35,884 nucleotides of DNA. Source: a bacterium (lineage in GTDB: Bacteria > Patescibacteriota > Patescibacteriia > JACPHY01). The stretch lies in contig JAUSKG010000004.1 in the NCBI GenBank assembly GCA_030647005.1, positions 1 through 35,884 on the forward strand, in the 5' to 3' direction. Below the pieces are notes generated by a model. It saw only the letters and a program-made list of their open reading frames with translations. It ran no database searches and was not told where the DNA came from. Positions 4,816 to 33,354 of the stretch are shown piece by piece (position 1 is the first letter of the stretch; every line of letters starts with the position of its first letter). The translations under genes and the position numbers were made by a program.

Positions 4816-5277
4816 ATGATGAACGAGCGTGCCCTCCAAACGATTGCGGCGACCAAAGGCGTCACCACCGCGCGACGCCACATCTTCCTGTGCGCGGACC
4901 AGACGGAACCCAAGTGCTGCACGCGCGAGACCGGCATCGCCTCCTGGGACTTCCTCAAGCGTCGCCTCCGTGAACTTGGCCTCTCCGATCAGGGTAGCGC
5001 GGTTCCGCTTGACGCGGACGGCCTCGACGACGTGGACGACGCGCTCGATATCCTCCGTGAGGAAGTCCCACGACACGATGTGCAGCACCGCACGGTATGC
5101 CGCACAAAAACGAACTGCCTCCGCATCTGCACCGGCGGCCCCATCGCCGTTGTCTATCCCGAGGGCGCGTGGTACGCTGGCTGCACGCCCGTGGTGCTCG
5201 AACGCATCATCCAGGAGCACCTCATCGGCGGAACCATCGTTGCGGAGTACTGCTTTGCGAAAAATCCACTCGCGTGA
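4816..5277 (+). CDS. Thioredoxin-like [2Fe-2S] ferredoxin domain protein
   Basis: A 153-residue protein resembling the thioredoxin-fold 2Fe-2S ferredoxins. It opens with [14 protein letters not shown] (C26, C34, C35), and the second half has [20 protein letters not shown] followed by YPEGAWYAG, the typical pattern in which cysteines C101 and C105 complete the cluster site. It probably transfers single electrons in the cytoplasm; the partner is unknown. ATG 4816 lies five bases after the recR stop, and a second in-frame ATG follows at 4819. It is the last gene of the dnaB-recR unit and ends before a strong hairpin. Confidence 0.85.
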
Positions 5278-15067: not shown

Positions 15068-15209
15068 TCCACACTGACAAAACCGAACAGATACCGAACA
15101 CAATGAATACCACAAAAACACCCAACAATACACGCTCCGAACGATTCTCTATCCTTTTTATTATGGTCCATATGCCAGAGGATATGAGCATAGAGACGTA
15201 CAGGACGCA

Positions 15210-15240
15210 AAAACACCCCCGATATGCTCGAGGGTGTTTT
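15210..15240 (-). terminator. Intrinsic terminator of the DUF4015 gene
   Basis: AAAACACCC (15210-15218) pairs with GGGTGTTTT (15232-15240), and an inner CGA/TCG pair extends the stem past one mismatch. On the minus strand the stem ends in GTGTTTTTG, giving a U-run. It lies 28 bases after the stop codon at 15269. Confidence 0.8.
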
Positions 15241-15268
15241 ACGATCCGCTGTTCCCATGGCGGCGAGA

Positions 15269-16348
15269 TCACTCTGTGCCCGACGCGCGCATTCCCTCGC
15301 GATGGAGAGCGCCCGTATGGAACCTCCCCACGGGATTCCAGAGCATCCAACCGGAGCCGCCGTTATCATCCACTGCCTGCATCTGTGCGCGTACCATTGC
15401 GTCGGTGTAGACGGCACCGAGGTTAAAATCCTGGAGCCACGGCCGCACCGCTGGACGCTGCTCCTCTGGCAGCGCAGCGATGCGCGCCATACCGCGCTCG
15501 AGCGTGCGATTGATGACATCGTAGGGTGCATCGGCGGGATTTGCATGCCCACCAAATCCACTCGCGTAGTGCGAGGGGTAGACCATTGGCGCGAGCACAT
15601 CAAAGTACGGCGCAAACGTCTCGAGGTGCTGGCCGATGCCCATGCCATCTGCCGCGTAGAAGGAAAGCCCAAAGACGTCCGCAGAGGTACGGATGCCCGA
15701 ACCGCCTACATCCCGCTTGATCGTCTCACCAAACCGCCGCACGATCTCGGTCTTTGGTGTCTCACCATCCCAGTGCGGGAACACGATGCTCCGGAGCGCA
15801 CCATCGGACGGAAACCGTATGTAGTCGAAGTTCACCTCGTCAAATCCCAACGCGGCGGCCTCATGCGCCATGTCAACGGCGTACTGGCTGGTGACCGGTG
15901 ATGCCGCATCGAGCCATGCGTACCCAATGCTGTCGCGCCAGAGCGCGCCGCCGGGCCGCTGCAGTGCCTCGGTTGGATGACGCTCGGCGAACCAATTGTC
16001 CTGAAAAACTGCGACTCGCGCGATCGCAGAACCGCCCGCCGCATGGATGGCATCGAGTTTTCGAGGCAAATCCTTGATCGTGTAACGCTCCGGCGCGATC
16101 GCGCGGATGGGTTCTGTTACCGGTCGAAACGCAATGCGTCCATCCGGGTCCTTGAGGTCTATGACAATCGCATTGACTTCAGTCGAGGCAACGATCTCCA
16201 CGTATCGGTCGAATGACGAACTCGCCGCACCACCAGAAGTGAGGTAGATCGCTCGCAGGGGCGCATCGAGGTCCGGCGGTTGATCGAACACACCCGCCAG
16301 CGTCCCGCTGGTGAGCAATGCAACCGTGAGGACAAATGCGGCAAACAT
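15269..16348 (-). CDS. DUF4015 putative glycoside hydrolase, secreted or anchored
   Basis: A 359-residue protein with an N-terminal hydrophobic signal (about 2-19). The body fits the DUF4015 TIM-barrel family: IYLTSGGA, then NAIVIDLKDPDGRIAF, ARVAVFQDNWFAERHP, the acidic GFDEVNFDYIRFPSDG, ADVFGLSFYA and MVYPSHYASGF near the end. The acidic residues in VNFDYIRFP are the best candidates for catalysis. The substrate, perhaps an envelope polysaccharide, is unknown. The start is uncertain: ATG 16348 begins the signal but lacks a good ribosome-binding site, and ATG 16392 is possible. A small hairpin (GGAGGT/ACCTCC) lies just upstream. Confidence 0.82.
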   Translation of the reverse strand: MFAAFVLTVALLTSGTLAGVFDQPPDLDAPLRAIYLTSGGAASSSFDRYVEIVASTEVNAIVIDLKDPDGRIAFRPVTEPIRAIAPERYTIKDLPRKLDAIHAAGGSAIARVAVFQDNWFAERHPTEALQRPGGALWRDSIGYAWLDAASPVTSQYAVDMAHEAAALGFDEVNFDYIRFPSDGALRSIVFPHWDGETPKTEIVRRFGETIKRDVGGSGIRTSADVFGLSFYAADGMGIGQHLETFAPYFDVLAPMVYPSHYASGFGGHANPADAPYDVINRTLERGMARIAALPEEQRPAVRPWLQDFNLGAVYTDAMVRAQMQAVDDNGGSGWMLWNPVGRFHTGALHREGMRASGTE

Positions 16349-16426
16349 AGGGAGGTCTTCCGTGAACCTCCAGTATACCAGAGAGACGCTCATTCCTTCT
16401 GATCCTCCCCCTCTCCATGGTCTCAT

Positions 16427-16543
16427 GGGGAGGGAGAGCGAGAGGCCTGCGCTGCGCCGTGCCCTTCCGTAGCGTTGCGCGAAGGAGGGTAGCTCGCAGA
16501 GCGAAGTAGCGGGGAGGGGCGGTATGTAGGCTTGGCAATAACC
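16427..16543. other. Non-coding purine-biased stretch between genes
   Basis: About 120 bases after the 2H phosphoesterase stop. They hold short inverted pieces (for example CCTTCCGTAGCG/CGCGAAGGAGG near 16464-16488) and G-rich runs, and no open frame of interest. It may be another dispersed repeat, but no second copy was seen. Confidence 0.3.
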
Positions 16544-17161
16544 CTACGAGCGAAGTGCAAAGGTGCTCAGGAGCCGCACACACGTCCCGTGCGCACCAGC
16601 GGCAAACAATCCAATAGCTGCAGGAACGCATGAGAAGTGCTCAAGCTCCTCCACTGGCAGCACTCCCCCATCGTCATCATTCGCCATCCGCGTCAACGTG
16701 AGATGTGGTCGGTACAGTGCGCCCACGGATCGGTAGCCGTACTGCTCAATGTTCTGCCGCACCTCCGGAAGAGCGCGAGGGAGACGTGCGGCATCTCTGG
16801 CACGCAAATGACCCGCTCGCAGTGGGTTCACTGCCTCGATGACCGCTCGCTGGAGTGTCACCAACGCTGCGTGCGATTCGTATTCCACATCAATCCACCG
16901 CTCTTGGCGGGCGAAGCGCGTCGCGACGAGCAGTGGCCGCTCCATCGCTGTGGCGATGCGTGCGAGACGCTCGCGAACGATGTGCAGCACGCCACTGGGA
17001 AGTATGGTGTAGTAGAGTGTGACGTGCGGACGCTCACGGGTCTTGTCGAGTACGAAGAGGCCTCCGCGTCGCTGGAGCGCCTGGCTCATCGCAATGGCAC
17101 GTGCCGCGACCTCCGCTGGCGGGATACACGCGATGATGTACTCTCGCATACTAAAAAACAT
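16544..17161 (-). CDS. 2'-5' RNA ligase/2H phosphoesterase (LigT/ThpR-like)
   Basis: A 205-residue protein with both HxT motifs of the 2H phosphoesterase fold: PHVTLYY (H46, T48) and PHLTLTR (H153, T155). The family opens 2',3'-cyclic phosphates or ligates and cleaves 2'-5' RNA bonds; the substrate here is unknown. It begins three bases after the rlmN stop. A second start at ATG 17149 (MREYII) would remove four residues and cannot be excluded, as neither has a clear ribosome-binding site. The length is typical. Confidence 0.88.
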   Translation of the reverse strand: MFFSMREYIIACIPPAEVAARAIAMSQALQRRGGLFVLDKTRERPHVTLYYTILPSGVLHIVRERLARIATAMERPLLVATRFARQERWIDVEYESHAALVTLQRAVIEAVNPLRAGHLRARDAARLPRALPEVRQNIEQYGYRSVGALYRPHLTLTRMANDDDGGVLPVEELEHFSCVPAAIGLFAAGAHGTCVRLLSTFALRS

Positions 17162-17164
17162 TCA

Positions 17165-18244
17165 TCACGATGCCGAACGTTTCACCGTTGCGAGCTGTCC
17201 ACAGGCCGCGGCGATGTCGTCGCCCATGGTCTTCCGCTGCGTGACGGTGTATCCGGCATCGAGGAGGACGCGCTTGAAGGTGTCAATGCGCTCCTGCTGT
17301 GCGCGTACGAAGGGCTTGCCCGCAACGGGATTCCACGGGATGACGTTCACCTTGCTCGACCCTGTTCGCGCGATGAAACGCGCGAGCTCCCGCGCGTGCT
17401 CGGGTGTATCGTTCACCTCGTTGAGGAGCGTGTACTCGTACGTCACATGGTGGCGACGATTCCCGAGCGACTGGTGGTATCGCTGCGCCCAATCCGCGAG
17501 GCGTTCGAGGAACTTTGGAGCGGTCGTGGGGACGATCTCGCGGCGACGTTCCTCATTGGCACTGTGGAGGGAGATGGCGATGCGGACGTGCGGCCACGCG
17601 GGATCCGTGAGGATGCGCTCGAGCTGCGGGAGGACACCAACGGTCGAAACGGTGATACGCGTCGTCCCGATGTCCGTCACACGCAGCCACGTCGTGATCG
17701 CGGATTTCACATTCGCGTAGTTCGCAAGTGGCTCGCCCATGCCCATGAACACGATGTTGCTGATGCGCGCATACTTGACCGTTTCGGCGTGGTCCTGGAG
17801 CCAGTACATCCAGAACCGGTACTGGTCGGCGATCTCATCTGCAGTCAAGCTCCTCGTGAGTCCCATCGCGCCGGTTGCGCAGAAGGTGCACCCCATCGCA
17901 CATCCCACCTGCGAGGACACACAGATCGTCCACTGCCCGCGACGATTCGCCATGAGCACGCTCTCGAAAACGAGCCCGTCCTCTGTGGCGAGCGCCGCCT
18001 TGAACGTATCGCCCGCGCGACTCTTGAGGATCGCCGCCTGCGTCACGGACATCCACGGGACCGCGGCGAGTGCCTCCCGCATGGCGTGGGAGAGCGTCGT
18101 GACGTCTGCCCACGCACGGATGGACGGATCGAACAGCGCGACCTCAATCTGCCGGAAGCGGAAGTCCTGCACATCACGAAGAACCGCGCGGATGCGATCC
18201 GCGCGAAGCGTCGCGGGTGGCGGTGTGTGCTCGTCCTGCGTCAT
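17165..18244 (-). CDS. rlmN: 23S rRNA/tRNA adenine-C2 methyltransferase RlmN
   Basis: A 359-residue radical-SAM enzyme that makes 2-methyladenosine in 23S rRNA (A2503) and some tRNAs. The iron-sulfur motif CxxxCxxC is C115, C119 and C122 (CAMGCTFC), followed by GAMGLTR. The methyl-carrying cysteine is in GDDIAAACGQL near residue 348, so both essential cysteine sites are present. ATG 18244 is preferred over an in-frame start at 18328 because the family N-terminus begins there. Confidence 0.95.
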   Translation of the reverse strand: MTQDEHTPPPATLRADRIRAVLRDVQDFRFRQIEVALFDPSIRAWADVTTLSHAMREALAAVPWMSVTQAAILKSRAGDTFKAALATEDGLVFESVLMANRRGQWTICVSSQVGCAMGCTFCATGAMGLTRSLTADEIADQYRFWMYWLQDHAETVKYARISNIVFMGMGEPLANYANVKSAITTWLRVTDIGTTRITVSTVGVLPQLERILTDPAWPHVRIAISLHSANEERRREIVPTTAPKFLERLADWAQRYHQSLGNRRHHVTYEYTLLNEVNDTPEHARELARFIARTGSSKVNVIPWNPVAGKPFVRAQQERIDTFKRVLLDAGYTVTQRKTMGDDIAAACGQLATVKRSAS

Positions 18245-25966: not shown

Positions 25967-26688
25967 GAAGTACCATTACCAACCTGCACATACTCCCGCC
26001 ATACGTCGTAGAGGGCTTTCGTAGCGCGAATATCGCGAGCGTTGTAGCGTGCGATGTCGAGGAAGTCGCCGCGGCGGAAGTACTCCCCCACCTCGCTACC
26101 ATCCATGCCGTCCTTGGGGGTCTCAATGCCAAACGCGCGACAGTAGAGGTGCAGTGAGTGGCGCCGGAACGTCGCGCCGTAGAACGTGAGCTGCTCCTTG
26201 AGGTCCACATGCTGCGCATTGGCAGCGCACTGGTAGAGATACCGCCCGCGCATGAGGTCCTTCGTCGGCTTGATCCGATGCACCGCAGAACGAATCATGA
26301 GGTACGGAACATCAAACGACCGGCCATTGAACGTGACGAACGTCTGTGCGTACCGCGCGATCTCCCAGAACTTCGCCAGGATCCCCGCCTCATCCATCGC
26401 CTCGTACTTCACGTCATCTTCCTCAAACGGTGCGACATCCGCACCCGGAGCCCGAAAGTACACCGCCCCCTTCTCCGTCTCCGCATCGAGCACCCCAACC
26501 GAAACGATCTCACCCGTCAACGGCGACAACCCGAGTTCCTCCTGCTCCTGCGCCAGCAGCACCTCCATGTCCAATCCCCTCTCCTCCGCCTTCCTCCCCA
26601 CCGCCTTCTCCACAACGCCTCGCGTCTGCTCATCCAAATCCTCCCATCGCTCTCCGATGGTCTCAATGTCGAAGATGAGGGTCTTCAT
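25963..26688 (-). CDS. DnaQ-like 3'-5' exonuclease (PolB-exonuclease type)
   Basis: A 241-residue RNase H-fold nuclease of the DEDDy type: Exo I is FDIETIG (D7, E9), Exo II is TFNGRSFDVPYL and Exo III is YNARDI. It resembles the predicted 3'-5' exonuclease family related to B-family polymerase proofreading domains. It may trim DNA ends unwound by RecQ, which is encoded directly after it. Its ATG overlaps the DUF2330 stop as ATGA. Confidence 0.88.
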   Translation of the reverse strand: MKTLIFDIETIGERWEDLDEQTRGVVEKAVGRKAEERGLDMEVLLAQEQEELGLSPLTGEIVSVGVLDAETEKGAVYFRAPGADVAPFEEDDVKYEAMDEAGILAKFWEIARYAQTFVTFNGRSFDVPYLMIRSAVHRIKPTKDLMRGRYLYQCAANAQHVDLKEQLTFYGATFRRHSLHLYCRAFGIETPKDGMDGSEVGEYFRRGDFLDIARYNARDIRATKALYDVWREYVQVGNGTS

Positions 26689-28295
26689 ACACCATCATTG
26701 AGGATACCTCCAGCGGGTGGATTGTTTTGTATGCGAAGATGCGCCGTACGAATCATTAACGCGACCATGACGTTAAATAGCACCGCGCCAAAAATCGGAA
26801 CGGCAAACAATAAACCGTACCACCTCGAATGGAAACAGGAACGCGCCATCTTCATCCAAAGACCAACCCATGTACCTGCCTGCTCCAGGGCAAGCAGGAA
26901 GAGCACACCAAAGAACGTAAGGAATACATAGAAATCCGGTTCGGGTGGTACATTGCGCTCGTACACGAATTGAGCAACGACCAAACTTGTCCAACCGATC
27001 GCCAACATCGCCGGTGGCAAAGCACTCCATACACCCCACCACCATGAGGCACCAACAATACGCCGTGCGATATCTATATTGAACAACGGAATCCAGGCAA
27101 TCCAGCTTCGATGCGGAATACCACGATGGCGCGCAAGCGTGTGGAGCGCGCGTGCCATGAATAGGTGAGCTGTAAAGAAGGTAGCAAGCACCATACCGAG
27201 TAGTGCCCATCGCCAGAAAAACTCGATGATGCGCTCCATCAAGGTTGGTGGTACATCGATGTTGTAGGCAGCGGTGGTGATCGTGAGCTGACTCCTCGAC
27301 ATGACAACACCAGCGGACTCTTGCACATGATTCGGCATGAGGAACATGAGCGGATCATCGTAGTGCACGCGCTCTTCGTACGGTGCATCCCACGGCACAA
27401 GCGCGAGATCTTCACGGATGCGAGTCGGATCGATATCCACTTCCATTGCAACCATCCACGCAGGGGACCAGAGGTACGGAGAGAGATGCGGATACGCGCT
27501 GTTCGAGGTGGACCGCCCAACTCGTCCACTGAATACCAGTCCGGCTCCCGGAATGACATACGGATCAATGCCGATCGTCCAAACAGAAAACCGTTGCGTG
27601 GGGTCGTTATCAGCAGCAAGACGTAGTGGAATGACGGGTTGAACAGGCCGAAATGCAAATGCGAGCGGCGGCGTGTTGTAGGTACCAAGGATGCTACTAC
27701 TCACCCGTGCACGCGTCGCATTAATACGCACGGCAACAAACACTGTCCCGCGCTGCGCGACCGCACGACGAAAATTCTCACGATCTTGATCCGTAATGAC
27801 ATAATCGCGATCTTCTAACCATTCCGTAAGCGCGCGAGCATCTGATGCGTCGAGCGTCGTCACATCAAAATCGCCAATAGATTGTTCTTTGATGACCGAA
27901 ACACCTGCAGCCGATGTCTGGCCGCGACCAAATTTTACCCTACTGACTCCCACATCAACACTTCCAGGAAGACGTCGCCTCGGGAGTGGCCTGGTGAACT
28001 CGATGAGTTCTTTAAACAACGCTTCGTGTGCCTTCGCGATGTTTGGTTGCGCTGGCAGCGCGAACACCGCACCGAAATCTTTTGCATCGCTTTGATAGGC
28101 GAGGTCCACCACGAATCGCTCCACTTCCCCATCCCACGTCACGAGCATGCGCGTTCGCCCGGTCAACTCAACACGCTGGCCCGGCCGAGTGAACTCTCCG
28201 CTCACGCACGCACGCGCCACTGGTACATGCAATCCGAGCAACAACCCCATCGTCATCAATGTGCCGATTGCCGTACGCATACCAGGGGAGTACAT
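26685..28295 (-). CDS. DUF2330 protein fused to a membrane domain
   Basis: A 536-residue envelope protein. A signal sequence (about 6-30) ends near the first cysteine, ACVSG. A DUF2330 domain follows (about 30-350), starting with the VTWDGEVERFVVDLAY and VFALPAQPN strands. At least four membrane helices make up the C-terminal third, with SWIAWIPLFNIDIARRIVGASWWW resembling DUF5684-type proteins. This looks like a two-domain fusion. ATG 28295 is chosen by analogy with the 20380 start, which has the same TACACGCT motif; ATG 28280 is possible. It overlaps the exonuclease start and so heads a repair operon, for no obvious reason. Confidence 0.8.
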   Translation of the reverse strand: MYSPGMRTAIGTLMTMGLLLGLHVPVARACVSGEFTRPGQRVELTGRTRMLVTWDGEVERFVVDLAYQSDAKDFGAVFALPAQPNIAKAHEALFKELIEFTRPLPRRRLPGSVDVGVSRVKFGRGQTSAAGVSVIKEQSIGDFDVTTLDASDARALTEWLEDRDYVITDQDRENFRRAVAQRGTVFVAVRINATRARVSSSILGTYNTPPLAFAFRPVQPVIPLRLAADNDPTQRFSVWTIGIDPYVIPGAGLVFSGRVGRSTSNSAYPHLSPYLWSPAWMVAMEVDIDPTRIREDLALVPWDAPYEERVHYDDPLMFLMPNHVQESAGVVMSRSQLTITTAAYNIDVPPTLMERIIEFFWRWALLGMVLATFFTAHLFMARALHTLARHRGIPHRSWIAWIPLFNIDIARRIVGASWWWGVWSALPPAMLAIGWTSLVVAQFVYERNVPPEPDFYVFLTFFGVLFLLALEQAGTWVGLWMKMARSCFHSRWYGLLFAVPIFGAVLFNVMVALMIRTAHLRIQNNPPAGGILNDGV

Positions 28296-28358
28296 ATTTG
28301 AGCGTGTAAAAAAGTAAAAAACTACCTCCCATGCTGTCATTGCGGGTTTGCGAAGTGG

Positions 28359-28400
28359 GGAAATGGGGTCAGGAAATGCGGAAATGGGGTCAAGTCCAAT
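28359..28400. repeat. Tandem half-arms of the MITE family and island edge
   Basis: GGAAATGGGGTCA occurs at 28359-28371 and 28380-28392, the second copy running on into AAGTCCAATTT. It is close to the arm of the 97-bp elements at 28946 and 29698. A TGTCATTGCGGG arm lies just upstream (28334-28345). Base composition drops sharply here, marking the left edge of the accessory region. Confidence 0.55.
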
Positions 28401-28438
28401 TTCTCCATCCAGGCATTCATTGTCACATTGTCTGTTGG

Positions 28439-28882
28439 TTAGATTTTTAGAAGATAGTCAGTAATCATTTTCCGTGCAGGAGGATTAAAACCACTATATG
28501 CTTCGCCGGCGATGTAGTCCTGAATTGAAACCCATTTCCATTCGGAAAATTTTTCTGGCTCCATGAGTTTTGCGTCCTGCTTCGTTGTGCAATAAAACAT
28601 AAGAACTACATCACCCTCTTTTGCGCCAGGCACTTCGCCAATAAAATCCAAAATATTCAAATCTGTGATATCAACTTCTTCAGCAACCTCTCGTCGGAGA
28701 GTTTGTTCAACTGTCTCTCCGATATCAGAGCGACCACCTGGAATTGTCCATACTGATATTTTCTTCCACTTATCTGGCGTATAATGACGATGACCAGTTA
28801 GAACTTTGCCGTCTTTCACAACGACTGCAATTGGACATGTTATTCCGTCTCCTTGTTTGATAAGTTGATTTTGCATAATCAT
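28439..28882 (-). CDS. Nudix hydrolase, island copy
   Basis: A 147-residue protein with the Nudix box GGRSDIGETVEQTLRREVAEE followed by VDI; the usual final Gly is Asp, while the Glu and Arg residues needed for metal binding are kept. ISVWTIPGG before the box is typical. The substrate is unknown. It is AT-rich compared with the backbone. Its ATG overlaps the TGA of a truncated Xre-type regulator, so it was once the second gene of a regulator-Nudix pair. ATG 28875 is an alternative start. Confidence 0.88.
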   Translation of the reverse strand: MIMQNQLIKQGDGITCPIAVVVKDGKVLTGHRHYTPDKWKKISVWTIPGGRSDIGETVEQTLRREVAEEVDITDLNILDFIGEVPGAKEGDVVLMFYCTTKQDAKLMEPEKFSEWKWVSIQDYIAGEAYSGFNPPARKMITDYLLKI

Positions 28883-28938
28883 TTCTTTAGTAGATCATCC
28901 ACTGAAACCTCAAGGGCTTTCGCAATCTTTTGTCGCAG
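28879..28938 (-). pseudogene. 3' remnant of an Xre-family HTH regulator gene
   Basis: Read on the minus strand, the codons before the TGA at 28879-28881 give LRQKIAKALEVSVDDLLKK, the usual last helix and tail of HTH_3 (Xre/Cro) repressors. Upstream, where the DNA-binding helices should be, the frame runs straight into the 97-bp MITE-like element. The N-terminal part was not found elsewhere in the window, so the gene is broken. The stop overlaps the Nudix start (ATGA). Confidence 0.7.
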
Positions 28939-28945
28939 AATAAAG

Positions 28946-29042
28946 GAGAATAAAGGGGTCAAGTCCATTTTCCACTCGATCACTTCGTGTTCCTTATAGC
29001 CATCATCGCGTCATCGTCAAAGAAATGGACTTGACCCCTTTA
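28946..29042. mobile_element. 97-bp MITE-like element, left copy
   Basis: It matches 29698-29794 at 96 of 97 positions (T/C difference near 28994). Inside, perfect 20-bp terminal inverted repeats (28951-28970 and 29023-29042) share the core GGGGTCAAGTCC. It is too short to code for a transposase. The GGGGTCAAGTCC core resembles repeats tied to IS200-like/RAYT transposases, but no such gene is here. Confidence 0.8.
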
Positions 29043-29094
29043 CTTATGTTTACTATGTATAGCAATTTATAGAGAACGTAGATAGACGGTCAGA

Positions 29095-29625
29095 TCACTT
29101 TTTTGAGCGTGTCCCAAGTAGATTTTGGATAATAACCTGCGCCTGTTTGAGTCTGAGATTAACCAAAACCGAAGAAACTTCTCCGACATCTTGATATAGG
29201 TTATTAGCGACATCCTTCAGGCTCAGGTTTGGGTTATACTTAAATTTCTTTTGAAACTTTCGTATGATGGCCGCACGCTTTTTATAAAACTGTTCTCCAC
29301 TCTTTTTCTTAATAAACACTCTCCAGTCTCCGAAATGTTTTTCCTTGTTGCACCGCTGACAGCAAGGAACGATATTGCCCCAAGCATGGAGGCCAAGTGC
29401 AGTTTTGTTTATTGGTACAAGATGATCGTTAGTTACGTTATCTTCAGTTAGTGCGACACCACAATAACAGCACGAGTTAGAGAACAGTGCTAAAACTTCC
29501 TTCCACTCTGTGCTTTTCGTATTGAATTTTTTGAAACCCCGAGCTTCATCATAAAATGATCCGGCTTCTTGCAAGAGCATCCGTATTGCTGAATTAGATA
29601 TGTCGGATTTTGATTTTGTGCCCAT
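29095..29625 (-). CDS. HNH endonuclease between two MITE copies
   Basis: A 176-residue AT-rich gene. The HNH core spans about 60-110: CCYCG, then NDHLVPINKTALGLHAWGN and VPCCQRCNKEKHFGDW. The two CxxC pairs bind a structural zinc, and His in DHL plus Asn in GN are the catalytic candidates. The rest is basic (KKKSGEQFYKKR), as expected for a DNA binder. I start at ATG 29625; the frame runs on upstream but is not HNH-like. Both flanks carry the same 97-bp repeat, so the gene may move as a cassette. Its target is unknown; restriction, homing or anti-phage roles are all possible. Confidence 0.82.
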   Translation of the reverse strand: MGTKSKSDISNSAIRMLLQEAGSFYDEARGFKKFNTKSTEWKEVLALFSNSCCYCGVALTEDNVTNDHLVPINKTALGLHAWGNIVPCCQRCNKEKHFGDWRVFIKKKSGEQFYKKRAAIIRKFQKKFKYNPNLSLKDVANNLYQDVGEVSSVLVNLRLKQAQVIIQNLLGTRSKK

Positions 29626-29697
29626 ATGGTAATTATGACGCTTTCTGGTCTTCCACGATAATGCGCTGACTAGTCCGGCAGGATTCAAATTTGTTTA

Positions 29698-29794
29698 GAG
29701 AATAAAGGGGTCAAGTCCATTTTCCACTCGATCACTTCGTGTTCCCTATAGCCATCATCGCGTCATCGTCAAAGAAATGGACTTGACCCCTTTA
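29698..29794. mobile_element. 97-bp MITE-like element, right copy
   Basis: Same unit and same orientation as 28946-29042, with its own perfect 20-bp inverted arms at 29703-29722 and 29775-29794. Together the two copies make a direct repeat around the HNH gene. Confidence 0.8.
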
Positions 29795-29850
29795 TCTGAC
29801 CCTTTACTTATGACCCCTTTACTTAAAGAAATGGACTTGACCCCTTTACC
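29795..29850. repeat. String of MITE arm fragments
   Basis: Right after the second copy, TGACCC(C)TTTAC is repeated at about 29797, 29811 and 29837, the last as a full arm AAATGGACTTGACCCC. These look like partial copies left by slippage or repeated insertion at one site. Confidence 0.6.
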
Positions 29851-29857
29851 CTACTGT

Positions 29858-29921
29858 CCGCCCGCCTCGTCGCGGGATCGATCGGGGCTGGGCGGACGAA
29901 TCGAGGTTGAGATTCTCTGCC
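29858..29921 (+). repeat. Inverted repeat family, left copy
   Basis: About 62 bp beginning CCGCCCGCCTCG and including GCGGG, GGGGCT and ATCGAGGTTGAG. The reverse complement of 35822-35884 matches it at roughly 80 percent with a conserved small hairpin (CCCGC/GCGGG). The rest of the gap up to 30028 shows no gene. Confidence 0.65.
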
Positions 29922-30028
29922 AACGGAGCTATCCTTTAGATGTGTAGGGAACTTAGGCCCCACGTTAACTTCCGTACCCATCTTAGCACCACGAGGCAGA
30001 ATGCGGAACGAGATCGAAATACGATTCC

Positions 30029-30381: not shown

Positions 30382-30954
30382 ATGTCTATCCCGCTTCCAA
30401 AAGTTGCATCAAATATGATGCCAAATATTATAGCTCTTTGTGAACAATTAGTACCGAATGGGAAACCCTTGTATCTAGATGTTGAAGTAATCAACGGCTC
30501 AATAGAGAGTGAATGCTACAAGAATGTTGAAAGTGTGATTAAAAACAAGGGTGGTACAATTCAGTATGGTTGGCAGATATGGGAAACCATTCCCGATCTT
30601 ATGGCTGAAGCAGAATTTCATGCGGTGTGGGCTGATAATAGCGGCGAGCTTCATGATGTAACGCCGAAATCATTATCGGAAATCAACCAAATATTATTTT
30701 TGCCAGACCCTGTCCGTAAATATGGGAGTAGACAAATTGATAACGTAAGAGTCCCGTTACAAGATGAAATTCTCATCAAACAGTTTATTGAAAACGCCAA
30801 AAAGTATTTTGAAGCAACCAATCGTGATGAATTGGCTAATTACCACGGATGTATAGTTGCAAATTCAGAAATTCAAAAATTAGTGAAAGAGAAAAACGAA
30901 ATATTCCTTAATATTATTCAAAAATTTTGGGAACTATATACTAAATCACCCTAA
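30382..30954 (+). CDS. Hypothetical protein resembling the domain found with SEC-C motifs; 3' end replaced by a transposon
   Basis: A 190-residue AT-rich gene. The middle, GWQIWETIPDLMAEAEFHAVW followed by GELHDVTPK and FLPDP, resembles a domain often placed before SEC-C zinc motifs, though no SEC-C cysteines are present. Function is unknown. The last eight residues (WELYTKSP) are encoded by the left end of the IS1595 transposon. Removing it and one target copy gives a gene ending KFFT and a stop at 33337-33339, so the insertion only swapped the C-terminal tail. Confidence 0.75.
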   Translation: MSIPLPKVASNMMPNIIALCEQLVPNGKPLYLDVEVINGSIESECYKNVESVIKNKGGTIQYGWQIWETIPDLMAEAEFHAVWADNSGELHDVTPKSLSEINQILFLPDPVRKYGSRQIDNVRVPLQDEILIKQFIENAKKYFEATNRDELANYHGCIVANSEIQKLVKEKNEIFLNIIQKFWELYTKSP

Positions 30955-30980
30955 AATGGGTGTTTTTAGTTATCCACATT

Positions 30981-31016
30981 ACAGGACTTGACAACCCTAG
31001 AATGATCCTGTATGAT
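30981..31016 (+). promoter_or_regulatory. Transposon promoter with flanking palindrome, probably leaderless
   Basis: TTGACA (30988-30993), 17-bp spacer and TATGAT (31011-31016) form a near-consensus promoter. The -10 ends eight bases before the transposase ATG (31025), so the mRNA should start at or beside that ATG. ACAGGA (30981-30986) and TCCTGT (31006-31011) form an inverted pair around it, a possible operator. Confidence 0.8.
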
Positions 31017-31024
31017 GGGTATAT

Positions 31025-31951
31025 ATGGTGAAACCCGCCCAATTCAGTACACTCTTGGAGTTTTTGACCAACTTCAAGGACGAGGAGAAATGCCGCCAAT
31101 ACTTTGAGCAAATCCGCTTCAAGGATGGCGACTATTGCCCGCATTGCGCCCACGGCAAGATCAACCGCTTTGCGGATGGGAAGCGATACCGCTGCGCGAA
31201 GTGTCGAAAGGACTTCACCATCAAGACGGGCACCGTTTTTGGTGAGAGTAAAATCTCGCTGCAAAAGTGGTTCATTGCGATCTATCTCCTCACTACGTCT
31301 CCTAAGGGCATCTCGTCCGTGCAGCTCGCAAAGCAGTTGGGCGTGACGCAAAAGACGGCGTGGTTCATGGATCATCGTATCCGTAAGGCGATGAAGAACG
31401 GCGGCAAGCTGTTTGGCAATGTCGAGGTGGATGAAACGTACATCGGCGGCAAGGAAAAGAACAAGCACGCATCGAAACGGACAAAGGGTGTGCAGGGACG
31501 TTCGCTGAAAACAAAGAACGCTGTTATGGGCATGGTGGTACGCAATGGCAACGTCATTGCGTCCGTCATTCCAAATGCGAAAATGCGAACGCTCGAAAGT
31601 AAGATCGTCGCACACATTGACATTGGTTCCACGCTCTATACCGATGAACTCATGTCGTACTCGAAAATCGGATCGCTCTACAAGCATGAAGCGGTCAATC
31701 ACAGCAGCGGCGAATACGTCCGAGGCGATGCACACACAAATAACGTCGAGAGTTTTTGGGCATTGTTCAAGCGCGGGTATCACGGCACCTATCACACCAT
31801 GTCGGGCAAGCATCTCCAGCGGTATGTGGACGAGTTTGCTTTCCGATGGAACGAGCGGAATACCCCAATGGATAGTATCTTTGCCAATACGGTGGAAAGC
31901 GTCGCGGAGACAAAAACGCTACACTATAAGAAGCTCACCGCAACCGTATGA
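31025..31951 (+). CDS. IS1595-family (ISXO2-like) DDE transposase
   Basis: A 308-residue transposase. An N-terminal zinc ribbon (C38, C41, C57, C60) is followed by a helix-turn-helix (SSVQLAKQLGVTQKTAWFMDHRIR) and the catalytic core: VDETYIGG (D136), YTDEL (D207) and HTNNVESFW (E242), then KRGYHGTYHTMSGKHLQRYVDEF. All key residues are present, so it should be active. Its stop overlaps the methyltransferase start (ATGA), which suggests coupled translation. Confidence 0.95.
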   Translation: MVKPAQFSTLLEFLTNFKDEEKCRQYFEQIRFKDGDYCPHCAHGKINRFADGKRYRCAKCRKDFTIKTGTVFGESKISLQKWFIAIYLLTTSPKGISSVQLAKQLGVTQKTAWFMDHRIRKAMKNGGKLFGNVEVDETYIGGKEKNKHASKRTKGVQGRSLKTKNAVMGMVVRNGNVIASVIPNAKMRTLESKIVAHIDIGSTLYTDELMSYSKIGSLYKHEAVNHSSGEYVRGDAHTNNVESFWALFKRGYHGTYHTMSGKHLQRYVDEFAFRWNERNTPMDSIFANTVESVAETKTLHYKKLTATV

Positions 31952-32832
31952 GCCGTCCACCGCAAATCTTCCACCCTCCCATTTCCGCAGGTTTTGACGA
32001 GGTGCTTGGAGCCATTGCGAATGAGCAGCGACCACAGGCACGGAGCGTACCCGCTAAGCCGTTTGTCAAGTGGGTAGGCGGCAAGCGTTCTATTCTCCCG
32101 CTCCTCATGGAGCGATTGCCGAAGGAGTACACCGCATACCATGAGCCGTTTGCTGGTGGCGGTGCGTTGTACTTTGCGCTGCAACCGCAACGGGCGACGC
32201 TCTCGGATGTCAATTTGCATCTCGTCCTAACGTACATTGCCATTCGGGACGACGTGGAACGATTGATCACGCTCTTGCGCGAACACACGCAGAAGCACGG
32301 CAAGACATACTATCTCAAGGCGCGGAAACGCCTCTCTACGGAAGAGGACGGAACGGTCATTGCGTCGCTATTCATCTACATCAACAAGACGTGTTTCAAT
32401 GGCCTCTACCGCGTTAATAAGGATGGCGCGTTCAATGTTCCGATGGGCAAGTACACCAACCCGCCCATCCTTGACGAGGACACATTGCGAGCGGATCATG
32501 CAGTGCTGCAAGGCACGAAAATCGTTTGCCAATCGTTTTCATCCATTCGCCCAAAACAACAGGCGTTCTACTACCTCGATCCGCCGTATCACGCGACGTA
32601 TGACGGCTACAACGGGAGTGGTTTCAATGATGATAAGCACCGCGAACTTGCCGCCATGTGCAGAAAGATAGACGAGAAGGGCGGGTACTTTATGCTCTCA
32701 AACTCCGATACTCCCTTTGTGCGCGACCTCTACCGCGCATACACCATCGAACGGGTGGAAGCATCTCGCTCCGTGTCATGTAAGGCGCATCAGCGCGGCA
32801 AAGAACATGAACTCATCATCAGGAACTACTAG
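31948..32832 (+). CDS. Dam-like (D12 class) DNA adenine-N6 methyltransferase
   Basis: A 294-residue enzyme with KWVGGKR (41-47), the SAM motif HEPFAGGGAL (65-74), the Dam-typical FNGLYRVNKDGAFNVPMGKY (150-169) and the catalytic DPPY (211-214), followed by LSNSD. It closely follows the Dam/DpnM plan, so GATC is the likely target, but specificity must be tested. About 35 extra residues precede the usual N-terminus. It would protect host DNA from the nuclease encoded next. Confidence 0.93.
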   Translation: MSRPPQIFHPPISAGFDEVLGAIANEQRPQARSVPAKPFVKWVGGKRSILPLLMERLPKEYTAYHEPFAGGGALYFALQPQRATLSDVNLHLVLTYIAIRDDVERLITLLREHTQKHGKTYYLKARKRLSTEEDGTVIASLFIYINKTCFNGLYRVNKDGAFNVPMGKYTNPPILDEDTLRADHAVLQGTKIVCQSFSSIRPKQQAFYYLDPPYHATYDGYNGSGFNDDKHRELAAMCRKIDEKGGYFMLSNSDTPFVRDLYRAYTIERVEASRSVSCKAHQRGKEHELIIRNY

Positions 32833-33301
32833 CGGCGGCGGACGCGCTAACAAGACGGGCAATAGCTTGGAGCAGTTTGTCGAGCACAAGCTCAAAGAGC
32901 ATGGCTACACGGAGTTTTGGGATCACAAAAGACAGGTGTTTGCGAACAGGACGACGATAGGAGGCAAGCAGTACGGGAAGCAAATCTATTGCGGCAAAAG
33001 CATCTACGAGACGGATCGCAAATGCGACTTCCTCGTGCTCAATCAAGAGAAGTGGCCAGACGGCCTCATCATCGAGTGTAAGTGGCAACAGTCCAGTGGC
33101 TCCGTGGATGAAAAGTACCCGTTTGCATTTTTCAACATCTGTAAAATAGGCGTGCCGACCGTTGTTCTCCTAGATGGCAATGGATATAAACCCGCTGCCA
33201 TGCGGTGGCTCAAGGAGCAGGCGCATCCGCAGAGAGCACTCATCGCCGTATACAACATGGTGGAGTTTCAGACAGCGGTCAATAATGGTTTTCTTGGTTA
33301 G
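32807..33301 (+). CDS. PD-(D/E)XK nuclease, probable restriction partner
   Basis: A 164-residue protein. After a Gly/Ser-rich start, ANKTGNSLEQFVEHKL gives the first helix with E23, CDFLVL supplies D74, and LIIECKWQ supplies E90 and K92, a complete PD-(D/E)XK site. PTVVLLDGNGY is a further strand. ATG 32807 lies 26 bases inside the methyltransferase gene, so the two are translated from one message. It is most likely the restriction half; homology to a characterised enzyme was not recognised. Its TAG lies in the right transposon end. Confidence 0.82.
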   Translation: MNSSSGTTSGGGRANKTGNSLEQFVEHKLKEHGYTEFWDHKRQVFANRTTIGGKQYGKQIYCGKSIYETDRKCDFLVLNQEKWPDGLIIECKWQQSSGSVDEKYPFAFFNICKIGVPTVVLLDGNGYKPAAMRWLKEQAHPQRALIAVYNMVEFQTAVNNGFLG

Positions 33302-33354
33302 GGTTGCTTTGTATATAGTTCCCAAAATTTTTTACTTAAGCAGATCATCACTTT

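What the first reader, a model, noticed from the sequence alone, without database searches (positions are those of the whole stretch)
30929..33323. Restriction-modification system carried as cargo of an IS1595-family transposon
Transposase, Dam-like methyltransferase and PD-(D/E)XK nuclease lie between matching 26-bp terminal inverted repeats and an 8-bp AAAATTTT target duplication. The genes overlap (ATGA, then 26 bp) and share one promoter, and the last stop lies in the terminal repeat. A methyltransferase and nuclease inside the transposon would make it self-stabilising, since loss would expose the host to the nuclease. IS1595 members with passenger genes are known; I do not know of one with a full restriction pair in CPR bacteria.
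Basis: partly seen in the sequence, partly recalled or inferred. Interest (0 to 1): 0.92.

Follow-up and report, generated by a model that had tools for sequence, protein, structure and literature searches.

The report
Transposon carrying its own restriction system
A small jumping gene in an ultra-small bacterium carries a complete DNA-cutting and DNA-protecting enzyme pair, and the switch that turns on all three genes contains the very DNA letters (GATC) that its protecting enzyme is predicted to mark, so the element may read its own mark to control its own jumping.

Summary
Window 30929-33323 (2,395 bp) is an intact IS1595-family transposon: imperfect 26-bp terminal inverted repeats (22/26), a perfect 8-bp target duplication (AAAATTTT), and three overlapping genes, transposase, Dam-family methyltransferase and PD-(D/E)XK nuclease. 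It is not a one-off. All 10 other close elements that could be read have the same three-gene order with similar ends; they come from four CPR lineages, Acidobacteriota, Planctomycetota, Eremiobacterota, an unnamed MAG and two IMG/VR contigs. Four more distant elements carry the same pair. Ten of 14 elements with both ends have a perfect 8-bp duplication. The nuclease model has the restriction-endonuclease fold; the methyltransferase is closest to DpnM (GATC). The host has no other Dam-family gene. Best reading: a self-contained restriction-modification transposon, probably regulating its own genes by methylating its own promoter. Structure and cargo are shown; restriction activity, addiction and methylation control are inferred. 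Related IS1595 elements carry or adjoin other restriction systems (EcoRI-like, type IIG-like).

The parts
30921..30928 (.). left copy of 8-bp target duplication AAAATTTT
   Evidence: sequence
30929..30954 (.). left terminal inverted repeat GGGAACTATATACTAAATCACCCTAA
   Evidence: 22/26 identical to right repeat; similar ends in relatives
30947..30962 (+). terminator-like stem-loop CACCCTAAAATGGGTG followed by TTTTTA; might block read-in transcription
   Evidence: consensus scan only, no more such sites than chance
30988..31016 (+). operon promoter TTGACA-17-TATGAT
   Evidence: 11 of 12 consensus positions; TTGACA-CCC kept in all 17 close relatives' promoters
31004..31007 (.). GATC in the promoter spacer, 3 bp before the -10 box; predicted methylation site
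   Evidence: invariant in 11/11 close Dam-bearing elements, absent in 0/6 Dam-less ones having it
31025..31951 (+). IS1595-family transposase, 308 aa
   Evidence: NF033547 9e-64, PF12762, PF12760; catalytic residues invariant in 12 relatives
31948..32832 (+). Dam-family N6-adenine methyltransferase, 294 aa
   Evidence: TIGR00571 4.6e-81, PF02086; DpnM 2dpm 1.3e-53
32807..33301 (+). PD-(D/E)XK restriction-type nuclease, 164 aa
   Evidence: PF20472 7e-40, PF04556 1.4e-5; restriction-endonuclease fold
33298..33323 (.). right terminal inverted repeat; contains the nuclease stop codon
33324..33331 (.). right copy of 8-bp target duplication AAAATTTT

Best explanation
This is an autonomous IS1595-family transposon with passenger genes (a 'transporter IS') whose passenger is a complete type II restriction-modification pair of DpnM/Dam type, made as one operon with the transposase. 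Shown by sequence: ends, target duplication, three intact genes with conserved catalytic residues, wide occurrence of the same unit, and a GATC at a fixed place in the one promoter. Inferred: the methyltransferase marks GATC in the host and the nuclease cuts unmarked GATC, so the element defends the cell against unmarked DNA and punishes loss of the element. That would limit transposition and nuclease level with no help from the host, which has no other Dam-family gene.
For: Families. Ends and duplication. Same order tnp-dam-nuclease in all 8 complete close hits of the genome collection and in two IMG/VR elements, with similar ends; perfect 8-bp duplications in 10 of 14 elements with both ends. 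The three genes have diverged equally (mean identity 0.62, 0.61, 0.63; transposase-methyltransferase distance correlation 0.56, p 0.0008; transposase-nuclease 0.16, not significant), roughly as expected of a unit that moves together. Methyltransferase closest to DpnM 2dpm (1.3e-53), then E. coli Dam, both GATC enzymes. Nuclease has invariant D and E-x-K and the restriction-endonuclease fold. Promoter GATC 11/11 with Dam against 0/6 without in the close clade (Fisher 8e-5), while the neighbouring spacer positions vary; in L014 the promoter GATC is the only GATC in 3,155 bp where about 12 are expected. Distant elements L030 and L039 also have GATC in the spacer. The host's only Dam-family match is this gene. 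Precedents: Dam control of the IS50 transposase promoter (PMC4265352, which cites Roberts 1985 for IS10) and promoter methylation in CfrBI, AhdI and LlaDII (PMC12707154).
Against: No activity was tested. Two distant Dam-bearing elements (L075, L148) lack GATC in the promoter, so it is not universal. One distant element without Dam (L076) has GATC in its spacer. The association rests on related sequences: independent pairs on the tree are too few for a phylogenetic test. The nuclease's match to DpnII is weak and it has no sequence match in the PDB. Placing the nuclease in the same transcript as the methyltransferase leaves open how cutting is delayed on entry.
Confidence: 0.7

Rival explanations
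1. It is simply a restriction-modification transposon: the cargo serves defence and addiction, and the promoter GATC is an inherited sequence or a contact for RNA polymerase with no role for methylation.
For: All Dam-bearing close elements descend from related transposases, so shared promoter letters may be inherited; L075 and L148 do without the GATC.
Against: The five spacer positions before it vary freely while TGATC is invariant; some relatives that lack Dam lie among the carriers in the tree (weak support), keep TTGACA-CCC and have no GATC.
Confidence: 0.35
2. The methyltransferase acts as a repressor by binding the promoter GATC, perhaps with its N-terminal extension of about 35 residues, rather than by methylating it, as some restriction methyltransferases do.
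For: An N-terminal extension before the Dam core, with a conserved segment FDEVLxAIA, is shared by the relatives; self-control by methyltransferases is known in restriction systems (PMC3874152, PMC12707154).
Against: No recognisable DNA-binding domain was found in the extension; a methyltransferase that meets its own site will also methylate it.
Confidence: 0.2
3. The nuclease is not the restriction partner of this methyltransferase but a methyl-directed or other accessory nuclease; the pair does not work as restriction and modification.
For: Weak DpnII match and no close solved relative; fold match does not show specificity.
Against: The same two families occur as an adjacent pair without the transposase in cyanobacteria, alphaproteobacteria, a CPR genome and a plasmid, in differing orientation, as expected of a restriction-modification pair; the DpnII family match is above its curated cut-off.
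Confidence: 0.12
4. The element is a dead remnant or an assembly artefact.
For: Only one copy in the genome; repeats are imperfect (22/26); the G+C step along the window.
Against: All three genes are open with conserved catalytic residues; the duplication is perfect; the same unit recurs in many assemblies; the gene to its right has a 67%-identical counterpart in a genome of the same genus.
Confidence: 0.04

Closest known systems
tISCpe8 and MTnSag1 (IS1595-family elements with passenger genes)
   Same: IS1595-type transposase, about 25-bp inverted repeats and a target duplication, with passenger genes inside (PMC5704250)
   Different: tISCpe8 is described as a lincomycin resistance element, and both are mobilizable elements; here the cargo is a restriction-modification pair in one operon with the transposase
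ISPepr2 (named IS1595 element, Pelobacter propionicus plasmid)
   Same: IS1595 family transposase
   Different: transposase only 40% identical; its cargo was not examined
DpnII restriction-modification system (DpnM and R.DpnII, GATC)
   Same: methyltransferase closest to DpnM; nuclease has a weak match to the DpnII family
   Different: nuclease is about half the length of the DpnII model; the genes lie inside a transposon, behind its transposase
IS10 and IS50 (Dam-controlled transposases)
   Same: GATC in the transposase promoter (PMC4265352)
   Different: there the host's Dam does the marking; here the element carries its own Dam-family enzyme, and the GATC sits in the spacer before the -10 box
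CfrBI, AhdI and LlaDII restriction systems
   Same: methyltransferase marks a site in its own operon's promoter and alters transcription (PMC12707154)
   Different: not part of a transposase operon; here the effect is predicted only

Membership tests
IS1595 family | transposase of the IS1595/ISXO2 type with zinc ribbon and DDE domain | tested here: met
   NF033547 215 bits (cut-off 75), PF12762, PF12760; D136, D207 and E242 invariant in 12 relatives
IS1595 family | terminal inverted repeats of about 25 bp beginning GG | tested here: met
   26 bp, 22 identical; similar ends in relatives
IS1595 family | 8-bp target duplication | tested here: met
   AAAATTTT both sides; 10 of 14 elements with both ends have a perfect 8-bp duplication
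IS1595 family | actual transposition | not testable with these tools
   single copy, no empty site found
Type II restriction-modification system | DNA methyltransferase with intact motifs | tested here: met
   Dam family; DPPY invariant
Type II restriction-modification system | separate restriction-type nuclease with intact active site | tested here: met
   D75, E91-x-K93 invariant; restriction-endonuclease fold, BstEII Z 9.9
Type II restriction-modification system | both enzymes act on the same sequence; nuclease blocked by methylation | not testable with these tools
   needs biochemistry or methylation reads
DpnII/Dam GATC specificity | methyltransferase and nuclease homologous to GATC enzymes | tested here: inconclusive
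   methyltransferase clearly nearest DpnM and Dam; nuclease only 2 bits over the DpnII cut-off
Methylation-controlled transposon (IS10/IS50 type) | GATC in the transposase promoter | tested here: met
   31004-31007, conserved in 11/11 close Dam-bearing elements, but before the -10 box
Methylation-controlled transposon (IS10/IS50 type) | methylation changes promoter strength or transposition | not testable with these tools
   reporter and transposition assay needed

The most novel reading that the evidence does not exclude
A transposon that carries its own Dam-type methyltransferase and cognate nuclease and uses methylation of a GATC in its single promoter as a self-contained feedback that couples transposition, restriction and addiction: on in an unmarked new host, damped once the host is marked, briefly open after replication. 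This is methylation control of the IS10/IS50 kind without reliance on the host.
Probability: 0.45. Interest if true: 0.82.

Novelty: new variant of a known kind. Interest (0 to 1): 0.66.

Why it matters
Transposons with passenger genes, mobile restriction systems and methylation-controlled transposases are each known; here all three appear fused in 2.4 kb. It suggests how restriction systems reach CPR bacteria, whose genomes are small, and it gives a directly testable minimal system in which one methyl mark could set both transposition and restriction. If the promoter control is real, it shows a transposon that does not depend on the host's Dam. The wider finding that several IS1595 elements carry or adjoin different restriction systems points to this family as a vehicle for defence genes.

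Tried and rejected
Empty site: the same-genus genome has the right flanking gene (67% identical) but no counterpart of the left one, and the upstream DNA does not align, so no exact empty site. DNA-level search in relatives and plasmids found only the element itself and a second IS1595 element in the same genome. GATC avoidance as a signature of restriction: GATC is under-represented in the elements, but so are most other four-letter palindromes, and Dam-less elements too, so it is not specific; only the L014 and L008 cases are striking. Phylogenetic independent pairs: too few to reach significance. The nuclease had no match among PDB sequences, so its fold was predicted. L076 has GATC in its spacer without Dam; taken as chance, since by my estimate a spacer of this length holds GATC by chance in about 5% of cases. 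A scan of IMG/VR for the promoter pattern returned 38 stretches, only two of which hold this element, both already known. The nuclease is rare: found in 2 of 380 genomes drawn evenly from the phylum. Literature searches found no IS1595 element with a restriction pair, but the founding IS1595 paper (Siguier 2009) and the tISCpe8 paper are not held.

Full report
OBSERVATION. Window 30929-33323 is bounded by imperfect 26-bp inverted repeats (22/26 identical) and by AAAATTTT on both sides. Inside are three genes on the + strand: an IS1595-family transposase, a Dam-family methyltransferase and a PD-(D/E)XK nuclease. G+C is 51-54% in the element against 41-46% around it, in line with arrival from elsewhere. 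The element sits at the very 3' end of an upstream open frame: joining the flanks at the duplication would give that frame a stop a few codons further on, so the insertion only alters its last residues.

IT IS A RECURRING UNIT. A scan of 84,980 genomes with the nuclease gave 49 loci. The nine closest (60-72% identical) come from Colwellbacteria, Moraniibacteriota, Paceibacterota, Uhrbacteria, Acidobacteria (two), a planctomycete, Eremiobacterota and an unnamed MAG; eight have transposase, methyltransferase and nuclease in this order, and the ninth is cut by the contig end. Two IMG/VR contigs add more (L074, L124). The ends are GGGAACTATATAC...ACCCTAA-like in all; in L124 the contig starts inside the left repeat. 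Perfect 8-bp duplications, different in each, are seen in L001 (AAAATTTT), L006 (ATCTTTTT), L008 (TGAAAGAA), L010 (TAAAATTA), L011 (TTAAATTA), L013 (TAAAATTG), L014 (TTTAGAAA), L039 (GCACATTC), L075 (CTTATTTT) and L148 (ATTGTTTA); L007 has 7 of 8; L012, L074 and L030 none. Four distant elements (transposase 43-48% identical: L030, L039, L075, L148) also carry the pair. Several of these contigs are short MAG contigs, so their host labels are uncertain. L008, L014 and L124 hold one extra open frame between promoter and transposase, and L013 has about 600 bp between left end and promoter.

THE CARGO. The methyltransferase matches the Dam family model over its length; its nearest solved relative is DpnM (2dpm, 1.3e-53), then E. 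coli Dam, both GATC enzymes. DPPY is invariant in 13 relatives. The nuclease matches PDDEXK_11 strongly and DpnII just above its cut-off. In 22 relatives D75 and E91-x-K93 are invariant. Its predicted structure (mean pLDDT 85.5) matches restriction enzymes: BstEII Z 9.9, BsoBI 8.6, PspGI 7.7, with other PD-(D/E)XK nucleases among them; Foldseek alone gave no match under E 0.001. Outside transposons the pair exists in cyanobacteria, alphaproteobacteria, a CPR genome (G003) and a plasmid of Alicyclobacillus. In the transposons the three genes have diverged to the same degree.

THE PROMOTER. One promoter, TTGACA-17-TATGAT, serves all three genes. Between its two boxes lies GATC, 3 bp before the -10 box. 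In the 11 close elements with Dam the promoter reads TTGACAnCCCnnnnnTGATCnnnTA: GATC invariant, the five positions before TGATC variable. In the six close relatives without Dam (L004, L073, L144, L145, L147, L157) the -35 box and CCC are kept (one has TTGACG) but GATC is absent (Fisher 8e-5). In the transposase tree some of these six lie among the carriers, but with weak support, and independent pairs are too few for a formal test. In L014 the promoter GATC is the only one in 3,155 bp, against about 12 expected. Of the distant carriers, L030 and L039 have GATC in the spacer; L075 and L148 do not. Two closely related alphaproteobacterial pairs outside transposons (L019, L020) also have GATC 3 bp before a TATAGG. 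The host and its two nearest relatives have no other Dam-family gene.

MECHANISM. Shown: a structurally complete transposon with an intact transposase and an intact restriction-modification pair. Inferred from the families: GATC marking and cutting, hence defence and punishment of loss. Inferred from the promoter: methylation, or binding by the methyltransferase, adjusts the whole operon. Known parts of this idea are Dam control of IS50 (PMC4265352, which cites the IS10 work) and promoter self-methylation in CfrBI, AhdI and LlaDII (PMC12707154). Restriction systems on transposons, and some that themselves look like transposons, are known in general (PMC3874152). IS1595 elements with passenger genes are known (tISCpe8, MTnSag1; PMC5704250). 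I found no report of a restriction pair in an IS1595 element, but key papers are not held here, so this is not proof of absence.

WIDER CONTEXT. The same transposon clade has other cargo. L073 carries an EcoRI-family nuclease (PF02963, 2.8e-13) with an N6-adenine methyltransferase, divergent from its transposase. More distant IS1595 transposases in L078, L150 and L154 are followed directly by large N6-methyltransferase proteins, in L150 with an HsdR N-terminal nuclease domain; the right ends of L150 and L154 were not found and those of L078 were not sought. So restriction cargo seems to be a theme in this family.

VERDICT. As a kind it is a new variant of IS1595 elements with passengers; the self-methylated promoter is the part that would surprise a specialist and is open to a simple test.

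Noticed in passing
L073 2541-3233 and 3184-3858 (minus strand): A related IS1595 element carries a different restriction system: an EcoRI-family nuclease (PF02963, 2.8e-13) and an overlapping N6-adenine methyltransferase, divergent from the transposase.
   Followed up: partly
L078 950-3457; L150 4938-6584; L154 4932-6587: IS1595 transposases followed at once by large N6-methyltransferase proteins (L150 with an HsdR N-terminal domain), like type IIG enzymes; right ends of these elements were not found.
   Followed up: partly
L004 8791-8880, L145 4098-4184, L073 5074-5157, L144 842-926, L006 185-256: Five IS1595 elements hold a tRNA gene inside their ends; four are 84-90 nt with a long variable arm, and by ARAGORN three of those bear Ile (UAU) or Thr (UGU) anticodons and the fourth Ser (AGA). 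Long-arm tRNAs with mismatched anticodons carried by a transposon are odd (the L145 one is by ARAGORN alone).
   Followed up: partly
G000 contig C27, about 15071-17543 (L004 7072-9544): A second IS1595 element in the same genome, 61% identical transposase, duplication TTGCGAAA, no restriction genes, with the tRNA gene and a 144-aa open frame as cargo.
   Followed up: partly
L147 3119-3967: An IS1595 element whose passenger is a proteasome-subunit-like protein (PF00227, 6e-13).
   Followed up: no
promoters of L147, L157, L073, L145: In four Dam-less elements the promoter contains an inverted repeat of the form ACCCTA-n-TAGGGT (imperfect in some); its left half resembles the inner end of the terminal repeat, so it may be an operator for the transposase.
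   Followed up: no
window 29095-29688 (minus strand): HNH endonuclease gene near the element, weakly similar to Septu PtuB and IscB/Cas9d HNH domains.
   Followed up: no
window about 26000-30000: G+C falls from 62-68% to 41-46% along the window; the high-G+C left part may differ in origin from the right part, which has a counterpart in the same-genus genome.
   Followed up: no
L019 and L020 about 5055-5080: Alphaproteobacterial Dam-nuclease pairs outside any transposon also have GATC 3 bp before a TATAGG upstream of the methyltransferase, so the promoter GATC may be an old trait of this restriction system.
   Followed up: partly
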